The position numbers were made by a program, and so were the translations under genes. From contig NZ_LQPT01000081.1 in NCBI RefSeq assembly GCF_002102355.1, forward strand, positions 1-64,000: a stretch of DNA of 64,000 bases, in the 5' to 3' direction. Origin of the DNA: Mycobacterium sherrisii (GTDB lineage Bacteria; Actinomycetota; Actinomycetes; Mycobacteriales; Mycobacteriaceae). Under the pieces are notes generated by a model. The model had not been told where the DNA came from. It did no database searches and was given only the letters and a program-made list of their open reading frames with translations. This document shows positions 2,402-14,912 of this stretch, in pieces; positions within the stretch are counted from its first letter, which is position 1, and every line of letters starts with the position of its first letter.

Positions 2402-4426
2402 TTACGCTCGCGGATCGCTCGACGGCCGAACCGACCCGCGAGCCAGTTGGGCCAGCATCGCGTTGTAGGCGGCCAGGTCGGCGTCGTCGTCGCGATCGGC
2501 CGCCCGGTCGAGGCGCCGTGCGGTCCGCTCGTCGCTGCGCGCCCACTGCACCAGCAGGGCCAGCATCACGATCACGAGCGGCACCTCCCCCGCCGCCCAG
2601 GCGATACCCCCGCCCAGGTGCTGGTCACCCACCAGATCGGTGTGCCAACTCAAACCCAGGGACCGGTAGTAGGCCTCGCCGAGCACGGTGGGGGTGCCCA
2701 TCAGCTCCACCCCGAAGAAGGCATGCAAGGGCAGCGAGGCGAACACCACACCCACCTTGGCCAGCGGCGGGATCGGCCGGGGTGTCGGGTCCACGCCGAT
2801 CACCACCCAATAGAACAGGTAGCCGCTGACCAGGAAGTGCACATTCATCGCCAGGTGCCCGGAGTGACTGCCCACCGCGGCGTCGAAAATGCTACTGAAG
2901 TACAGGCCGTAAAACCCGGCGACGAACAGCACGGTGGCCACGATCGGATTGGTCAGCACGCGCGACACCTTGCTGTGCAGAGCGGCGAGGAGCCATTCCC
3001 GCATGCCGGGTGGGTCGTTGCGTCCGGCGGCGGGCAGCGCGCGCAGCGCGAGGCTAACCGGGGCGCCGAGCACCAGCAGGATCGGCACCAGCATCGACAA
3101 CCCCATATGCGCGGCCATGTGCATGCTGAACATCGCCGGCATGTACCGGCCAACGCCCGACGAGGTGACAAACAGCAGGGTCAAACACCCCAACAGCCAG
3201 GCCAAAATGCGGCCAGCAGGCCAGTGGTCGCCGCGGCGCCGCAGCCGCAGTACCGCCGCCACATACAGCGCCGCGAAGACGATGGCGGCCGTGCCGAAGA
3301 CCAGATCGAAGCGCCAGTCAAACAAGACGCGGGCCAGGGTAGGCGGTCCGTCGAAGTCGTAGCCGATCTCGGCTTCCGGGATCGACGGCAGCGGGTTCGG
3401 TGGTGGCGGCGGCGGGGTGCGGCCCAGCCCGACGGCGATGCCGAACGTCACCCCGAACAGGGCCGCCTCGGCGAGGGCCAACCGGATCAGGGGCTTGCGC
3501 GCCGCGGGATCGCGTTGCAGGGCAGCGACTCCCGTCCGGCGCTGCCGCCAGCCCAGCACGCCCAGCGCGCACAGCGCGACGAACTTGGCCAGCACCAGCC
3601 GCCCGTAGGTGGTGGTCAGCAGGTCCGACGGCAACACCCGCACCAAGGCGTTCATCACGCCGCTGAACCCCATCGCGACCCAGCACCACAGCGCGATCAT
3701 CGAGAAGCGTCGCGCGGCCAGCGCGAGGTGGTCGCCCCCGCGCAGCGAATGGGCCAGCAGCGCCAGCAGGCCACCGGCCCACACGCTGGCGGCGACCAGG
3801 TGAATCAGCAGGCTGTTGGTGGCCAGGTCATGCGAGCCGCCGGCCGACGAGTGACCGGTGAGCCCGAGGGGAATTAAGGTGATCGCGGCTCCGACGCACA
3901 ACAGCGGGGTCCACGACCAGCGCAGCACCGCGGAGCTGGCCAGCGTCACCAGCGCGGCCAGGACCGCCGTCCAGCGCCAAGCGGAGGCGGTGCTGATGAG
4001 GCTGGCCAGTGACCACAGCCGGAGCGGATCGAGCTGCTCGGACACCCGATGGCCGGACACGTCGGAAATCGTCAGCGGGATCAGCAGGACGGCGCACACC
4101 GTCCAGACCGCAGAGGCGACCGTTCCCAGCCGCAGCGCCCGGTAACCGCCGGCGTCCAGCACGCCGGACTGCTGCGGCGGCACCAGAAATGCCGCGAACA
4201 GGAACGATCCCACGGCCAGTACCGCGGCGATCTCCCCCACCGCCCGCACGAACGGCAGGCCCAGCGTGGTCGCCGGGCCGGGGTCGGGTAACCCGGTGGC
4301 CGTCAATGCCTCGGCCAGCGAGAGCGCTCCGATGCCGGCGGCCGTGCCACCGGCCAGCACCGCGACGCCGGTGAGCAGTGGCCACACCGTCTCCTGCGCA
4401 CTGGCTGTGGACTGCCGACCCGTCAT
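2402..4426 (-). CDS. CopD-CtaG fusion membrane protein (copper handling / cytochrome oxidase assembly)
   Basis: A 674-residue polytopic membrane protein. The first half has several hydrophobic spans in the order of a CopD copper-resistance domain (region with SAGGSHDLATNSLLIHLVAA, then WVAMGFSGVMNALV). The second half matches the CtaG/caa3 oxidase assembly family (YMPAMFSMHMAAHMGLSM, later VHFLVSGYLFYWVVIGVDP). Met/His-rich segments in membrane contexts fit copper ligands. The fused architecture is common in actinobacteria, and the nearest known mycobacterial relative is Rv0102. ATG at 4426 is chosen because the upstream extension is Pro/Arg-rich and non-hydrophobic. The gene follows plsB2 by 37 nt on the same strand and may be read through from the lipid operon. 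Confidence 0.85.
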   Translation of the reverse strand: MTGRQSTASAQETVWPLLTGVAVLAGGTAAGIGALSLAEALTATGLPDPGPATTLGLPFVRAVGEIAAVLAVGSFLFAAFLVPPQQSGVLDAGGYRALRLGTVASAVWTVCAVLLIPLTISDVSGHRVSEQLDPLRLWSLASLISTASAWRWTAVLAALVTLASSAVLRWSWTPLLCVGAAITLIPLGLTGHSSAGGSHDLATNSLLIHLVAASVWAGGLLALLAHSLRGGDHLALAARRFSMIALWCWVAMGFSGVMNALVRVLPSDLLTTTYGRLVLAKFVALCALGVLGWRQRRTGVAALQRDPAARKPLIRLALAEAALFGVTFGIAVGLGRTPPPPPPNPLPSIPEAEIGYDFDGPPTLARVLFDWRFDLVFGTAAIVFAALYVAAVLRLRRRGDHWPAGRILAWLLGCLTLLFVTSSGVGRYMPAMFSMHMAAHMGLSMLVPILLVLGAPVSLALRALPAAGRNDPPGMREWLLAALHSKVSRVLTNPIVATVLFVAGFYGLYFSSIFDAAVGSHSGHLAMNVHFLVSGYLFYWVVIGVDPTPRPIPPLAKVGVVFASLPLHAFFGVELMGTPTVLGEAYYRSLGLSWHTDLVGDQHLGGGIAWAAGEVPLVIVMLALLVQWARSDERTARRLDRAADRDDDADLAAYNAMLAQLARGSVRPSSDPRA

Positions 4427-8563: not shown

Positions 8564-10032
8564 GAGCTCGACACCGATCGCGACGTCGCTTCGGTTTGGG
8601 CGACGAACGACGCGGGCACCGCGCGTGGCGGCGGGTCACCGGCGAGCGCGAGGATCTCATCGAAGCCCTCCAGCAGGCATTGGGCGAACAACGCCTCCTC
8701 TCGCACCGCCGCGCGGTCATAGCGCACGGTGATGGTGCACCAACCCCCTCGCGAAATCAGCACCACCATCATCGCGACGCCGGGTAACGGACCAATGCCG
8801 TACTGCCGCAAGACTTTTGCGCCGGCAATGTACGTGTCGCCCGGGTACACCGGAACATTGCTGGCCTGTACATCCGAGCCGATGACCGAGCCGGTGATGC
8901 CCTCTAGCACCGCCGAGGGCAAGACGCTGAGCACCGGCGCCAACGCACCGATGATGTTCATCGCCGGCTCGTCGCGGCGCTGGGTCATCTGGGCGCGGAT
9001 CTTCTTCATGCGCGACACCGGATCCGCGGTACCCAGTGGCGCGGCCAGGTTCACGCCGGTGAACCGGTTGCCGCCGGCAGTGTCGGCGTCGGCCCGCAGC
9101 GAAACCGGCACCGCCATCGGCAACGTGCCGATCGGTACTCCGAGCGCCTGGTGGTAGCGGCGCAGCGCGCCTGATAGACCGGCCAGGTACGCGTCGTTGA
9201 TCGATCCGCCGCCGGCCTTGGCGGCCTTGTGCAGATCGGAGAGTCGGATGTCGATCGCCTCGGTGCGCGACGCCAGGCTGCGCCGACGCAACAACGGCGA
9301 AGGCTCCGCGGCGCGATTGATCACCCGCACTCCCGACACCGCGTAGTCCACGATTCCCGAAACCGTCGACACCGGTTCCAGGACGGCCCGACCGGCGGCC
9401 GACACCGCCCCGGCCACCGCACCCACGACACCGCCGACGATGTTCAGCGGCAAGCGGTTTAGGCCCTGGCGCATCAGGTCGTTGGGCGACAGGTCTTGCG
9501 GGACCGGCACCGGCGGTGTCGGTTTGGCCGGCGGATCGCGTTCGAGATCGTAGATTTCGGCGAACATCTCGACACCACCCACACCGTCGGTGACGGCGTG
9601 GCTGACGTGCAGCAGCGTCGCGGCCTTGCCGTCGGGCAATCCTTCCACCAGGGTGGCCGTCCACAGCGGCCGCGAGATGTCCAGTGGCGACTGCAAAATC
9701 AGCTCGCCGAGGTCGAACACCTGGCGCAGCGTGCCCGGTTCGGACACCCGCAGCCGGCGGACGTGGAAGTCCAGGTTGAAGTCGGGGTCGACCACCCAGC
9801 GCGGGGACGCGGTGGGCAATGTCGGCACGACGACCTTCTGCCTAAGCCGCAGCACCTTTCGCGACGCGTTCTCGAACCGGGTCCGGAACCGGTCCCAGTC
9901 CGGCGTGCTATCAAGCAGTTCCAGCGCCATGATGCCCGAGCGGGTACGCGGGTTGGCTTCGCCACGATGCAGCAGATAGTCCACCGGCCCCAGCTCGTCG
10001 GGCAATCTGGGACGTCCGTCGGGCTCAGCCAT
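8560..10032 (-). CDS. WS/DGAT-family acyltransferase (wax ester synthase / diacylglycerol acyltransferase)
   Basis: About 490 residues, first gene of the operon with plsC and plsB2 and equivalent in position to Rv2484c. WS/DGAT proteins use acyl-CoA to make triacylglycerol or wax ester. The hallmark HHxxxDG motif reads HVSHAVTDGVGG, so the second (catalytic-base) His and the DG are present but the first His is replaced by Ser. Conserved later blocks include NDAYLAGLSGALRRY and NVPVYPGDTYIAG. Three start codons lie close together (TTG 10041, ATG 10038, ATG 10032). I chose the last as the shortest sensible form. Some members with altered motifs are weak or inactive, so enzymatic activity is not certain. 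Confidence 0.88.
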   Translation of the reverse strand: MAEPDGRPRLPDELGPVDYLLHRGEANPRTRSGIMALELLDSTPDWDRFRTRFENASRKVLRLRQKVVVPTLPTASPRWVVDPDFNLDFHVRRLRVSEPGTLRQVFDLGELILQSPLDISRPLWTATLVEGLPDGKAATLLHVSHAVTDGVGGVEMFAEIYDLERDPPAKPTPPVPVPQDLSPNDLMRQGLNRLPLNIVGGVVGAVAGAVSAAGRAVLEPVSTVSGIVDYAVSGVRVINRAAEPSPLLRRRSLASRTEAIDIRLSDLHKAAKAGGGSINDAYLAGLSGALRRYHQALGVPIGTLPMAVPVSLRADADTAGGNRFTGVNLAAPLGTADPVSRMKKIRAQMTQRRDEPAMNIIGALAPVLSVLPSAVLEGITGSVIGSDVQASNVPVYPGDTYIAGAKVLRQYGIGPLPGVAMMVVLISRGGWCTITVRYDRAAVREEALFAQCLLEGFDEILALAGDPPPRAVPASFVAQTEATSRSVSSS

Positions 10033-11627: not shown

Positions 11628-11701
11628 GCCTCCGTAGCTCAGGTGGATAGAGCAAGGGCCTTCTAATCCCTAGGTCGCAGGTTCGAATCCTGCCGGGGGC
11701 G
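11628..11701 (+). tRNA. tRNA-Arg (anticodon TCT)
   Basis: A full cloverleaf can be folded. The acceptor GCCTCCG (11628-11634) pairs with CGGGGGC (11694-11700). D-stem GCTC/GAGC, anticodon loop CTTCTAA with TCT at 11662-11664, and T-stem GCAGG/CCTGC with loop TTCGAAT follow. The base at 11701 is the discriminator, and CCA is not encoded. The bottom anticodon-stem pair is C11659 with T11667, a mismatch. The 3' half from 11663 onward is duplicated at 12916, so this gene is the insertion target of the adjoining element. Confidence 0.95.
11663..11700 (+). repeat. attL: tRNA-side attachment repeat
   Basis: The 3' half of tRNA-Arg from the anticodon to the acceptor end. It aligns without gaps to 12916-12953 with three substitutions, and the run CTAATCCCTAGGTCGCA is identical in both. 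Crossover probably fell within this 17-nt identical core. Confidence 0.85.
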
Positions 11702-11742
11702 CAGGTCAGAGAAGATTTTTAGTGCTTCAAATATACCTCGAT

Positions 11743-12222
11743 TCACCGCTTATTCGGCGGATTTGGAGCGGTACCCGACACGGCCGTGTCGAGCAGGTCA
11801 GCGACCTCGGAGTGCACCTGGCCTCGTTTCATGTACGTGTCCTGTGTCATCGACACCTTGGCGTGGCCGAGCTGGTCAGCACCGATGCGGGCAGACAAGC
11901 CGCCCTCATCGATCAAGGTCGCGACGGTCTTGCGGAACGAGTGCGACGTCACGTCCGGTACGCCGAGCGCGGCACGGGCCTCGCGCCACTGTTGCGAGAA
12001 GTTGTCTGGATCGCGCAACGTGCCGACCGATGACGGGAAGATCACCTCGCACTCCCCTTCGATTGCCCGCCTGCGGCGCGCATTGAGCGCGTCGGCAGCG
12101 AACTTCGGTAGCGGTACCGTCCGGGCACTGTCCTCTGTCTTGGTCTCCGCGACACGCATTACACCCTTGCCCGCCGCCCGAACAACCTTTCCTGAGAGCC
12201 GTCGTCCGCCGGGATCATGCAA
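11743..12222 (-). pseudogene. Truncated tyrosine recombinase (integrase), C-terminal catalytic part only
   Basis: The frame encodes 159 residues. Only from about residue 27 (ETKTEDSARTVPLP) does it match phage integrase catalytic domains. Box II is present: TSHSFRKT (HxxR), then DQLGHAKVSMT with the second His, and QDTYMKR with the nucleophilic Tyr. The arm-binding and core-binding N-terminal domains and box I Arg, normally another 200 or more residues, are missing. The first 25 codons look like out-of-frame fusion sequence and overlap a small gene in another frame. It ends 42 nt from the tRNA, the usual place for an integrase beside its att site. Catalytically dead by inference. Confidence 0.85.
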
Positions 12223-12347
12223 TGCCTGTAGCCGAAGCTGCGGTAATCATCCGGCTGCCCCAGGTTTTCCCAGCCGTCAACCCAGAGGGCGCCCGCGGGC
12301 AACGGGACATCAGGGACGTCAGGTCGCAGATTATTGGTGGTGGTCAT
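12159..12347 (-). CDS. Small phage-type hypothetical protein, 3' end probably truncated
   Basis: Encodes about 62 residues beginning MTTTNNLRPDVPDVPLPAG with WVDGWENLG and YRSFGYRHC. The N-terminus resembles short proteins found next to integrases in mycobacterial prophages. This is from memory and not tested. ATG at 12347 has AAGGAAG just upstream. The last residues (ERLFGRRARV) run out of frame into the integrase stump, so a deletion joining the two genes has probably removed the natural C-terminus of this protein together with the N-terminus of the integrase. Confidence 0.5.
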   Translation of the reverse strand: MTTTNNLRPDVPDVPLPAGALWVDGWENLGQPDDYRSFGYRHCMIPADDGSQERLFGRRARV

Positions 12348-12389
12348 GGCCACTTCCTTTCGAGAGGAGTTGTTTGGAGAAGTATTATT

Positions 12390-12482
12390 TATAGCATTGC
12401 TATAACATATTCAACAAGGGCATTTTCGGCAAACGCCGAAAAACAAGGCGGGGGCGACGGAGATGCTTCTAGCGACGCTATA
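12390..12482. promoter_or_regulatory. Divergent control region with two operator-like palindromes
   Basis: TATAGCATTGCTATA (12390-12404) is a perfect 15-bp palindrome. TCTAGCGACGCTATA (12468-12482) matches it at 11 of 15 positions, with shared half-sites TAGC/GCTATA. Between them, TTTTCGGC (12423-12430) and GCCGAAAA (12435-12442) form a perfect 8-bp hairpin with a 4-nt loop. The region lies between the divergent small gene (start 12347) and HTH gene (start 12494) and is markedly AT-richer than its surroundings, as expected of a phage repressor/promoter region. Confidence 0.6.
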
Positions 12483-12493
12483 CTGATCGGACC

Positions 12494-12679
12494 ATGAATC
12501 ACTTGGCCCTGATCAGACGCGCCGTCAGGCGCCGTGAACGGCATCGCGCGGACGACGACGCCGAGATACGTCGCCTCGTCTGCGAAGGCTTCGCCCAGGG
12601 CATTCCCGGTCGGGAGCTTGCCGACGCCGTAGGGGTATCAGTGCCCCGGATCTACCAGATTCGCGACGGCCGGCGTTGA
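12494..12679 (+). CDS. Small helix-turn-helix protein of the element
   Basis: 61 residues, strongly basic at the N-terminus (RRAVRRRERHRADDD). The C-terminal half, GRELADAVGVSVPRIYQIRDGRR, reads as a classic helix-turn-helix with the turn at VGVS and a recognition helix at PRIYQIRD. It is short for a repressor. It could be an excisionase-like or transcriptional cofactor, or the surviving DNA-binding part of a larger protein. The ATG lies 11 nt after the second operator-like palindrome, so autoregulation is plausible. Confidence 0.6.
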   Translation: MNHLALIRRAVRRRERHRADDDAEIRRLVCEGFAQGIPGRELADAVGVSVPRIYQIRDGRR

Positions 12680-12732
12680 GCACGTTCTCCGAGGTTAAGA
12701 TAGACACATCGACTCCTTGTCAGTCGGTCACT

Positions 12733-12759
12733 CCCCGGCCTGCTCGCGCAGGCGCGGGG
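12733..12759 (+). terminator. Possible hairpin terminator after the HTH gene
   Basis: CCCCGGCCTGC pairs with GCAGGCGCGGGG with one bulged base and a 4-nt TCGC loop. There is no T-run, but ACTCTTCAATTTC follows. Located 54 nt after the stop of the helix-turn-helix gene and inside the right end of the element. Confidence 0.45.
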
Positions 12760-12915
12760 ACTCTTCAATTTCTGCCGTTTATTCGGCGAATATGGCGGGC
12801 CTACGCCGTTAATTCCCGTTAGCTCCGGTTTGATCCAGTTGGCTTAAACCCTTGTGCCACAGCGTGAGTCGTTATCTCACGTTACTTTCCGGAATGTGCC
12901 ATAACGCTAAATTTC

Positions 12916-12957
12916 CTAATCCCTAGGTCGCACGTTCGAGTCGTGCCGGGGGCACCA
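12916..12957 (+). repeat. attR: distal copy of the tRNA-Arg 3' half, with encoded CCA
   Basis: Matches the tRNA 3' half (11663-11700). It differs at a T-stem pair (C12933 with G12943 against G11680 with C11690 in the tRNA), so stem pairing is kept, and at one T-loop base. This copy ends GGGGGCACCA and therefore encodes CCA, whereas the intact tRNA gene does not. By the logic of tRNA-targeted integration the distal copy is the original chromosomal 3' end and the tRNA now carries the copy brought by the element. Confidence 0.85.
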
Positions 12958-12988
12958 GCAGGTTGTATTACCTCGGGTGATGCTTGGA

Positions 12989-13781: not shown

Positions 13782-14912
13782 GTGAGTCACAGAGTCGACG
13801 TCCATCACGACATCCACAGTGCGCACGGGGCACTTCGCGGCGAGCATCCCGGAAGGTCGCGCAATCCGGTGATCAAGGTGCGCGACATCGCCTGGCTGGA
13901 GTTCGACAAACCCGACCTGGTACGCGCTGAGGCTTTCGCCCGCGCTTTCGGGTTCCAGGTGTCGCTGAGCTCGCCCGACGAATTGCACCTGCGCGGAACC
14001 GATCCCGGTGCGGCGTGTGTGATCGTCCGGCGCGGCGATCGCAGTCGCTTCGCCGGAGTTGCCTTCGCCGCGCACGACGAGATCGACGTCATCAAGCTCG
14101 CGGACGCCGTCGGAGTGCCGGCGCGACCGCTCCCCGAGACCACAGGGGGCTTGGTGGCCGAGTTGGTCGATCCCAGCGGCATACCGGTGCGCGTCGTGGC
14201 CGGCATGCGTGAGTTACCCGCACTCCCGTCGCAACCACCCCAGCCCGTCAATGCCGACCACGAGGTTGCACAGATCAACACGACGCTGCGTCCGCCGCGG
14301 GTGCCGGCGCGCGTGCAGCGACTCGGGCACGTGGTCTTGCAGTCGACGAGGTATCTGCAGTCGCTCGACTGGTATCTCGACAACCTCGGCATGATCGTCA
14401 GCGACTTTTTGTTCTTCCCGGGTCAGCGAGAACGCGGACCCACCATGAGCTTCATCCGTTGCGACCGGGGCGCCACGCCGACCGACCACCACACCCTGGC
14501 GATGGCTCTTGGCCCGCGCGACCGCTACGTTCACTCCGCCTACCAGGTCGCCGACCTCGACGCACTGGCGGCCGGCGGTGAGTACCTGGCCGATCGCGGC
14601 TACGCCCGGTCATGGGGCATCGGCCGTCACATCCAGGGCAGCCAACTGTTCGACTACTGGCGCGATCCGGACGGTTTTCTGGTCGAGCATTTCGCTGACG
14701 GCGACATGTTCGACGACACCGTCGAACCCGGATGGGCACCGTTGACCGCAACCGGACTAGCGCAATGGGGTCCCCCGGTTTCCAAAGACTTTCTGGGAAC
14801 CAGCCCCCGGCTCGTCCTCGACGAAGCGCTGTCGATGATCACCGGACTTCGCCGCGACAACGAATTCGACCGCCACCGCCTTTTCGGCCTACTGAGAGCA
14901 GCCTCCTCGTGA
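13782..14912 (+). CDS. Extradiol (type I, VOC-fold) ring-cleavage dioxygenase
   Basis: 376 residues made of two VOC modules, as in 2,3-dihydroxybiphenyl/catechol-type enzymes that open a catechol ring next to its hydroxyls with Fe(II) and O2. The C-terminal module shows the metal ligands in the expected order: His in RLGHVVLQS, His in TDHHTLAMA, Glu in LVEHFADGD. The N-terminal module starts VKVRDIAWLEFDKPDL. GTG at 13782 is favoured: AGAGGT is 6 nt upstream, and earlier in-frame sequence includes the operator. The stop overlaps the next start (GTGA). Exact substrate unknown; it is not obviously HsaC. Confidence 0.85.
   Translation: MSHRVDVHHDIHSAHGALRGEHPGRSRNPVIKVRDIAWLEFDKPDLVRAEAFARAFGFQVSLSSPDELHLRGTDPGAACVIVRRGDRSRFAGVAFAAHDEIDVIKLADAVGVPARPLPETTGGLVAELVDPSGIPVRVVAGMRELPALPSQPPQPVNADHEVAQINTTLRPPRVPARVQRLGHVVLQSTRYLQSLDWYLDNLGMIVSDFLFFPGQRERGPTMSFIRCDRGATPTDHHTLAMALGPRDRYVHSAYQVADLDALAAGGEYLADRGYARSWGIGRHIQGSQLFDYWRDPDGFLVEHFADGDMFDDTVEPGWAPLTATGLAQWGPPVSKDFLGTSPRLVLDEALSMITGLRRDNEFDRHRLFGLLRAASS

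What the first reader, a model, noticed from the sequence alone, without database searches (positions are those of the whole stretch)
11663..12953. Minimal integrative-element remnant with both attachment sites in tRNA-Arg
Two direct copies of the tRNA 3' half flank an integrase stump, two small genes and a control region in only 1.3 kb. Keeping both ends while losing nearly all content is unusual and dates an ancient integration. It may also still serve as an integration target or satellite substrate for a related phage integrase.
Basis: partly seen in the sequence, partly recalled or inferred. Interest (0 to 1): 0.7.

Follow-up and report, generated by a model that had tools for sequence, protein, structure and literature searches.

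The report
Stripped-down mobile element in tRNA-Arg gene
A 1.25-kb leftover of a mobile DNA element sits in a mycobacterium's tRNA-Arg gene with both joining sites and a small regulator kept but its integrase broken, and its arrival replaced half of that tRNA gene.

Summary
A 38-nt repeat (35/38; exact 17-nt core) flanks 1253 bp at tRNA-Arg(TCT). Joining the two flanks rebuilds a tRNA identical, 77/77, to that of the sister species. So the downstream copy is the original host 3' half; the element supplied the present one, flipping a T-stem pair. Relatives of the truncated integrase sit at the same tRNA in elements of 5-20 kb. In six of these an arm-site motif lies 42-43 nt after the tRNA and 130-131 nt before the distal core; the window keeps both, at 44 and 140 nt. 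The right end (61-aa HTH gene, two operator-like palindromes) recurs beside a tRNA 3' half in five other tRNA genes, including another stripped 1.5-kb element in tRNA-Val; two larger ones carry phage-type genes (terminase small subunit, or primase).

Best reading: an internal-deletion derivative of a phage-satellite-like element (like a CIME), structurally complete in cis, with no close integrase relative found in its own genome. 'Ancient' is not supported: the sister species has an empty site. Mobilisation in trans and HTH function are inferred. New variant of a known kind.

The parts
11628..11702 (+). tRNA-Arg(TCT), chimeric: host 5' half plus element-supplied 3' half
   Evidence: ARAGORN; the two other matches in the own genome are tRNA-Arg(CCT) and tRNA-Arg(CCG), so no second TCT copy was seen
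11663..11700 (+). attL repeat (core 11663-11679), element-derived tRNA 3' half
   Evidence: differs from the sister-species tRNA by a flipped T-stem pair plus one loop base within the repeat
11747..11759 (+). arm-type motif CGCTTATTCGGCG, 44 nt after the tRNA end
   Evidence: 42-43 nt in relatives; one of only two sites with at most 1 mismatch to CGTTTATTCG in the 64-kb window
11743..12222 (-). C-terminal piece of a tyrosine integrase (about 147 of about 393 residues), no internal stop
   Evidence: PF00589, phrog_1, 67% (95 of 141) to L044 integrase residues 247-387 of 393
12159..12353 (-). small ORF, probably the N-terminal part of a gene, ending in another frame inside the integrase piece
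   Evidence: weak similarity (37% over 42 query residues, E=0.009) to the gene divergent from the HTH gene in G287; no match in PHROGs or phage records
12392..12402 (.). operator-like palindrome TAGCATTGCTA
   Evidence: one of only two such palindromes in the window; counterpart in G167, related ones in G182, G226, G287, G401
12470..12480 (.). operator-like palindrome TAGCGACGCTA, overlapping a -10-like TATACT (by eye) just before the HTH gene
   Evidence: exact or one-mismatch palindrome at -21 to -24 in 5 of 6 family members
12494..12679 (+). 61-aa HTH DNA-binding protein gene, intact
   Evidence: phrog_686; 90% to the G167 homologue, dN 0.050 / dS 0.646; AlphaFold mean pLDDT 88, four helices
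12776..12788 (+). arm-type motif CGTTTATTCGGCG, 140 nt before the attR core
   Evidence: 130-131 nt in six relatives, 125 in G167; the exact 10-mer occurs once in the window
12916..12957 (+). attR repeat = displaced original host tRNA 3' half with encoded CCA
   Evidence: joined to 11628-11662 it equals the G031 tRNA, 77/77

Best explanation
A phage-satellite-like integrative element inserted by tyrosine recombination between its attP and the 3' half of the host's tRNA-Arg(TCT) gene. The element's own copy of the 3' half was joined to the host 5' half (restoring a tRNA with a different T arm), and the original 3' half was pushed to the far end. A later internal deletion (inferred) fused the small gene near the right end to the middle of the integrase gene. 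It left a 1253-bp skeleton: attL core + arm site + integrase C-terminus / small-gene stub / two operator-like palindromes / HTH gene / arm site + attR core. Shown by sequence: the empty site, the polarity of the two tRNA halves, the truncated integrase, the arm motifs at both ends, and the shared right-end module. Inferred: the deletion itself, that the motifs are integrase arm sites, that the HTH protein binds the palindromes and represses itself and the divergent gene, and that an incoming integrase of this family could act on the two sites in trans.
For: Rebuilt empty site identical to sister G031 (77/77); window and G031 are sisters with 100/98 support in a tree of the upstream gene, 28 rows, 2 loci dropped as too short. 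Of 18 other rows in the window's clade, 15 carry the T-arm allele of the window's downstream copy (at least two of the 15, G402 and G155, are tRNAs with an element or a second core beside them). Reciprocal case: in G155 a 13.2-kb interval separates a tRNA with that allele from a distal copy with the other; rebuilding its site gives the G388/G070 tRNA with 1 of 75 different. Same-family integrases beside tRNA-Arg(TCT) with distal cores at 19.5 kb (G004), 16.1, 14.7, 13.5, 11.6 and 5.0 kb (L109, L115, L110, L116, L120). Of 39 named-collection loci scored (of 42 found), 9 have tRNA-Arg(TCT) beside the integrase and 1 tRNA-Arg(CCT). Rhodococcus phage Mbo4 integrase (50%) is annotated with 'attP (tRNA-Arg in DSM43205)'. 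Arm motif positions. Right end 85% identical over 225 nt to that of a 5.2-kb element in tRNA-Arg(CCT) of G167. Six genomes carry the HTH gene beside a tRNA 3' half, in six different tRNAs.
Against: Among the loci fetched, none but the window has both this integrase family and this HTH right end, so the parent is not in hand and the two ends could come from different elements. In phage Typha the related HTH gene lies between the holin and tRNA genes, with no integrase in the 8 kb shown, so the family is not tied to attR everywhere. The DNA right of 12,986 (TetR and following genes) lies elsewhere in G167, so the right host flank was probably rearranged and only the tRNA end itself proves the attR junction. 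The window's right arm site is 140, not 130-131, nt from the core. The exact window tRNA allele (36 nt) was found in no viral contig. G388 and G070 share the window's present T-arm allele without an insert seen. Satellite nature rests on two larger relatives, with Terminase_4 just below its cut-off (phrog_1496 E=3e-12).
Confidence: 0.85

Rival explanations
1. It is inert debris: a decayed element whose ends survive only because the left end holds the tRNA gene and the right end has not yet been lost; the HTH gene has no present role. (This is a rival about present function; it shares the origin of the best explanation.)
For: Integrase truncated; no close integrase relative in the genome; deletions inside an element naturally leave its ends; members were found through the HTH gene, so its retention is partly how they were chosen; no promoter support from the consensus scan.
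Against: HTH reading frame intact with dN/dS about 0.08 against G167 (this also covers time spent in an intact element); two palindromes matched in G167 and otherwise absent from the window; both arm motifs kept near family positions; a second 1.5-kb skeleton in tRNA-Val of G287.
Confidence: 0.45
2. A trans-mobilised mini-element: it moves, or moved in, as a 1.25-kb unit using an integrase from a co-resident element or phage, with the HTH protein as regulator or directionality factor.
For: Cores and arm motifs complete in cis; the tRNA-Arg(TCT) site is busy with full elements; parallel skeleton in G287; tandem structure at the same site in G416, where two successive distal cores both carry the right arm motif at 131 nt.
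Against: No integrase of this family found in the host; the integrase stump suggests decay in place; no second genome with the same mini-element appeared among 396 searched.
Confidence: 0.12
3. Not an insertion: a tandem partial duplication of the tRNA gene with unrelated DNA between.
For: Repeats alone could arise by duplication.
Against: Allele polarity, exact empty-site reconstruction, integrase piece in the canonical place and orientation, and arm motifs near family positions.
Confidence: 0.02

Closest known systems
CIME (cis-mobilizable element), as in Streptococcus and Streptomyces islands
   Same: Has lost integration genes but kept attL and attR; a tandem structure at the same site is seen in a relative (G416). 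Definition taken from passages of PMC5704250.
   Different: The parent looks phage-satellite-like, not conjugative; far smaller than the 20-kb TR1 CIME described in passages of PMC8369830.
Mycobacterium candidate PICIs and phiRv1/phiRv2-like elements (PMC10654092, passages)
   Same: Tyrosine integrases at tRNA genes (that paper reports an M. abscessus attB overlapping a tRNA-Arg gene, with a tested vector); relatives of the right end in G182 and G226 carry a terminase small subunit or a D5-type primase.
   Different: No complete integrase, capsid, terminase or replication gene was recognised here; that paper's candidate PICIs require an integrase and a capsid gene.
Small mycobacterial prophage-like elements in tRNA-Arg, e.g. 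phiBN42_1, 8.4 kb (PMC3986857, passages)
   Same: Short element bounded by a tRNA-Arg repeat.
   Different: phiBN42_1 keeps integrase, excisionase, primase, protease and capsid genes; its repeat reads like tRNA-Arg(CCT) (my reading).
tRNA-gene genomic islands as defined by Islander (PMC4383910, passages)
   Same: Regenerated tRNA gene plus displaced fragment mark the two ends.
   Different: Islander requires an integrase gene, so its filter should miss this one (inference; the tool was not run).

Membership tests
tRNA-integrated genomic element | intact tRNA gene plus displaced 3' fragment in direct orientation | tested here: met
tRNA-integrated genomic element | empty site in a relative | tested here: met
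   rebuilt site equals the G031 tRNA, 77/77; the right host flank beyond the tRNA is not conserved, e.g. in G167
tRNA-integrated genomic element | complete integrase gene | tested here: not met
   only about 147 of about 393 residues remain
CIME | attL and attR retained, recombination module lost | tested here: met
   cores and arm motifs at both ends, integrase truncated
CIME | derived from a conjugative element | tested here: inconclusive
   no conjugation gene was recognised in 1253 bp; larger right-end relatives show phage-type genes
CIME | mobilised by a related element | not testable with these tools
   needs an excision assay
phage satellite / PICI | integrase plus packaging or capsid gene | tested here: not met
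   no such complete gene in the window segment; relatives carry parts: G182 a terminase small subunit, G226 integrase and primase
HTH right-end module described here | 61-64 aa HTH gene pointing at a tRNA 3' half within about 240 bp, palindromes upstream | tested here: met
   6 of the 10 genomes with an HTH hit among 396 searched (G000, G167, G182, G226, G287, G401); palindromes are imperfect in G182 and G226 and partly missing in G401. Of the other four, G169 and G219 gave no tRNA repeat, G062 only had the 260 nt after the gene read, and G354 was not examined

The most novel reading that the evidence does not exclude
A so far unnamed class of minimal tRNA-borne elements in mycobacteria: two tRNA half-genes with complete recombination arms around a self-regulated HTH gene. 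They form repeatedly by loss of the integrase's catalytic core, persist because the HTH circuit is useful (for instance immunity against related satellites or control of recombination), and can be remobilised by any same-site integrase that enters; their traffic swaps the T arm of a tRNA present in one copy.
Probability: 0.15. Interest if true: 0.7.

Novelty: new variant of a known kind. Interest (0 to 1): 0.45.

Why it matters
It shows, with both alleles still present in one genome, that an incoming element rewrote the T arm of the genome's tRNA-Arg(UCU), including a base-pair flip that keeps the stem, and that a related species shows the opposite swap. It also links elements in six different tRNA genes through one right-end regulator module, which gives a handle for finding integrase-less elements that integrase-based searches should miss.

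Tried and rejected
Tandem duplication of the tRNA: disfavoured by allele polarity and the empty site. ARAGORN hits at 4141 (tRNA-Arg) and 4233 (unknown type): taken as false positives by eye. A related integrase in the host to act in trans: 14 PF00589 matches, 13 over the cut-off, one of these the stump; the 12 loci compared match the two full integrases of this family (L044, L109) at 22-30% only, and the stump's best piece is 43% over only 37 aa. The parent phage by exact tRNA allele in viral contigs: none. The small ORF in phage records and PHROGs: no match. The HTH profile in viral contigs: no relative confirmed, although the single-sequence search found two, at 46% and 51%, whose surroundings I did not study. 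The HTH protein in phage records: 5 Mycobacterium phage records, partial matches of 29-31 residues. PDB profile hit 8vd6 ('CAP REPEAT'): only a generic HTH-like part aligns, taken as chance similarity. Whether other genomes with two cores share this arm motif: eight checked (G243, G116, G364, G155, G069, G160, G410, and G025 with its copies on two contigs), none has it at the family positions; G263 and G211, which also have two cores, were not checked. The longer 13-nt arm pattern with 2 mismatches is no more frequent than chance (2 found, 2.7 expected). One search left 92 of 396 genomes unscored. A sigma-70 promoter for the HTH gene: not supported by the scan.

Full report
Observation. The window (contig C81 of a 5.56-Mb draft genome; its nearest named matches are mycobacteria) holds tRNA-Arg(TCT) at 11628-11702 and a second copy of its 3' part at 12916-12953, 35 of 38 identical with a 17-nt exact core. 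The exact core occurs only at these two places in the genome; the control pattern occurs nowhere in it. Between them lie a C-terminal integrase piece pointing at the tRNA, a small ORF, a control region and an intact 61-aa HTH gene. The other two own-genome matches to the tRNA are tRNA-Arg(CCT) and tRNA-Arg(CCG), so no second TCT copy was seen.

Which half is whose. The two repeat copies differ at three positions: one T-stem pair is flipped (two changes) and one T-loop base differs. Joining the host 5' half to the downstream copy gives a 77-nt tRNA that ARAGORN accepts and that is identical to the tRNA of G031. In a tree of the gene upstream of the tRNA (28 rows; two loci dropped as too short; five rows under half filled) the window and G031 are sisters (100/98) and G167 is next (99/97); both carry the downstream-copy T arm. 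Of 18 other rows in that clade, 15 have that T arm (at least two of them, G402 and G155, in tRNAs with an element or a second core beside them), 2 (G388, G070) have the T arm of the window's present tRNA, and 1 (G023) has a third. So the element most likely brought in the present 3' half and displaced the old one. G155, close to G388 and G070, shows the reverse: its distal copy has their T arm, its tRNA has the other, and the rebuilt site differs from theirs at 1 of 75 positions. The integration in the window is therefore younger than the split from G031, unless G031 lost an element precisely; 'ancient' is not supported.

Integrase family and site. The piece is identical at 95 of 141 residues (67%) to residues 247-387 of a 393-aa integrase beside tRNA-Arg(TCT) in G004. 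A search of 396 genus genomes with the region found 251 with a match at E<=1e-20; many of these cover the tRNA alone. Distal cores were found for G004 (19.5 kb), L109 (16.1 kb), L115 (14.7 kb, then a further core 1.9 kb on), L110 (13.5 kb), L116 (11.6 kb) and L120 (5.0 kb); none within the stretch held for L111, L113, L114, L117, L118 or L119. The integrase genes of L116 and L120 appear broken into two frames. Of 42 named-collection loci found, 39 were scored for a tRNA beside the integrase: tRNA-Arg(TCT) 9, tRNA-Arg(CCT) 1, the rest tRNA-Lys, tRNA-Met, tRNA-Asn or none. In phage records the best-scoring integrases include those of Rhodococcus phages REQ3 (53%) and Mbo4 (50%); Mbo4 is annotated 'attP (tRNA-Arg in DSM43205)'. 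Seven stretches of viral contigs hold the 24-nt core pattern; L102, L103 and L105 contain a tRNA there that ARAGORN recognises, L104, L106, L107 and L108 do not.

Arm motif. With CGTTTATTCG, six elements with both ends have a site 42-43 nt after the tRNA (0-2 mismatches) and one 130-131 nt before the distal core (0-1 mismatch): L110, L115, L116, L120, L109 and G004. The window has them at 44 (1 mismatch) and 140 (0); these are its only two sites with at most 1 mismatch in 64 kb. G167 has the right site at 125 and no left one. Of six further loci with only the left end, four have the left site at 42-43 with at most 1 mismatch (L111, L113, L117, L119) and two (L114, L118) have none at that threshold. 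The longer 13-nt pattern with 2 mismatches gives 2 hits against 2.7 expected, so the evidence is the position, not the count. The site rate over all DNA fetched by then is 46 in 2.33 Mb, counting repeated fetches of the same places and true sites.

Right-end module. DNA 12458-12682 is 85% identical to G167, where it lies at the right end of a 5.2-kb element in tRNA-Arg(CCT), 49 nt of whose 3' part and flank are exactly repeated. A search of 396 genomes with the HTH protein hit 10. In six the gene points at a tRNA 3' half within about 240 bp: Arg-TCT (window, 1253 bp between repeats), Arg-CCT (G167, about 5.2 kb), Tyr (G182, about 12.7 kb), Leu-TAA (G226, about 14.8 kb), Val-TAC (G287, about 1.54 kb) and Pro-GGG (G401, left end not on the contig). 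Integrases: full in G226; 288 aa with only positions 20-61 of 172 of the PF00589 profile matched in G182; a C-terminal stump in G287 and the window; none detected in G167 with four query integrases; unknown in G401. G182 carries a terminase small subunit (phrog_1496, E=3e-12; Terminase_4 just below cut-off) and a Cro/C1-type HTH protein; G226 carries a D5-type primase. Palindromes of the form TAGC-N2-4-GCTA lie upstream of the HTH gene: exact at -24 in the window and G167, one mismatch at -21 to -23 in G182, G226 and G287, none found at that place in G401; further exact or one-mismatch sites lie at -57 to -102. In the 64-kb window the exact form occurs only at these two places. Between window and G167 the HTH gene has dN 0.050 and dS 0.646 (NG86). 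The AlphaFold model is confident (mean pLDDT 88) with four helices, the last two placed like a helix-turn-helix (my reading). In phage Typha a related gene lies between holin and tRNA genes with no integrase in the stretch shown.

The G287 element is a parallel. In 1.5 kb it has the tRNA-Val gene, an integrase C-terminal stump, one further ORF, a 147-aa divergent gene (weak DUF6907 match, below cut-off), palindromes, the HTH gene and a 33-nt tRNA repeat (91%), with a 31-nt repeat (84%) near both ends. Since members were found through the HTH gene, its retention among them is partly selection of cases.

Mechanism. Shown by sequence: integration polarity, truncation, motif positions, module sharing. 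Inferred: one internal deletion fusing the small gene to the integrase around 12,200; arm-site function; autoregulation by the HTH protein; possible use by an incoming integrase. The host holds 12 other tyrosine-recombinase loci above cut-off, none closely related, so the element is probably stranded now. That the stump lacks the first catalytic arginine but keeps the HxxR and tyrosine boxes is my reading of the sequence with motifs recalled, not a tool result.

Novelty. CIMEs, prophage-like elements and mycobacterial candidate PICIs are known (passages of PMC5704250, PMC8369830, PMC10654092, PMC3986857, PMC4383910). Six full-text searches showed, among the rows listed (lists capped at 12-15 in the larger ones), no title or abstract start on this HTH right-end module or on reciprocal T-arm replacement at tRNA-Arg; they cover only the open library. 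I file it as a new variant of a known kind.

Noticed in passing
window 12964-12986; L122 about 995-1130; L002 about 1578-1700; L121 about 9904-10000: A short end of an insertion-sequence-like element (TGTATTACCTCGGGTGATGCTTGA...) lies just after tRNA-Arg 3' ends in several genomes; in G167 (L122) an ORF further on reads like a DDE transposase (by eye). It may prefer tRNA ends. In the window it lies at a probably rearranged right flank.
   Followed up: partly
L198 (G155), cores at 14889 and 1711, minus strand: Reciprocal tRNA-Arg T-arm replacement across a 13.2-kb interval, opposite in direction to the window's.
   Followed up: yes
L115 (G416): The 14.7-kb element at tRNA-Arg(TCT) carries a Gabija-like pair (GajA E=7e-170, GajB E=1.5e-136, PADLOC).
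   Followed up: yes
L109 (G112), 16.1-kb element: ORFs that look by eye like a prohead protease, a capsid protein and a 1349-aa tail-type protein; possibly a capsid-carrying satellite.
   Followed up: no
G182 element (L211 with L217): Two ORFs of 90 and 96 aa followed by a 476-aa ORF look by eye like an ESX-type secreted-toxin cluster, as reported for mycobacterial prophages and candidate PICIs in PMC10654092.
   Followed up: no
L195 (G243), 2.9 kb between cores: Another short interval at tRNA-Arg(TCT) with a 35-residue match to an integrase C-terminus, without this family's arm motif.
   Followed up: partly
L218 (phage Typha) 3869-4102: The phage's related HTH gene lies about 560 nt before a phage-encoded tRNA-Arg gene.
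   Followed up: no
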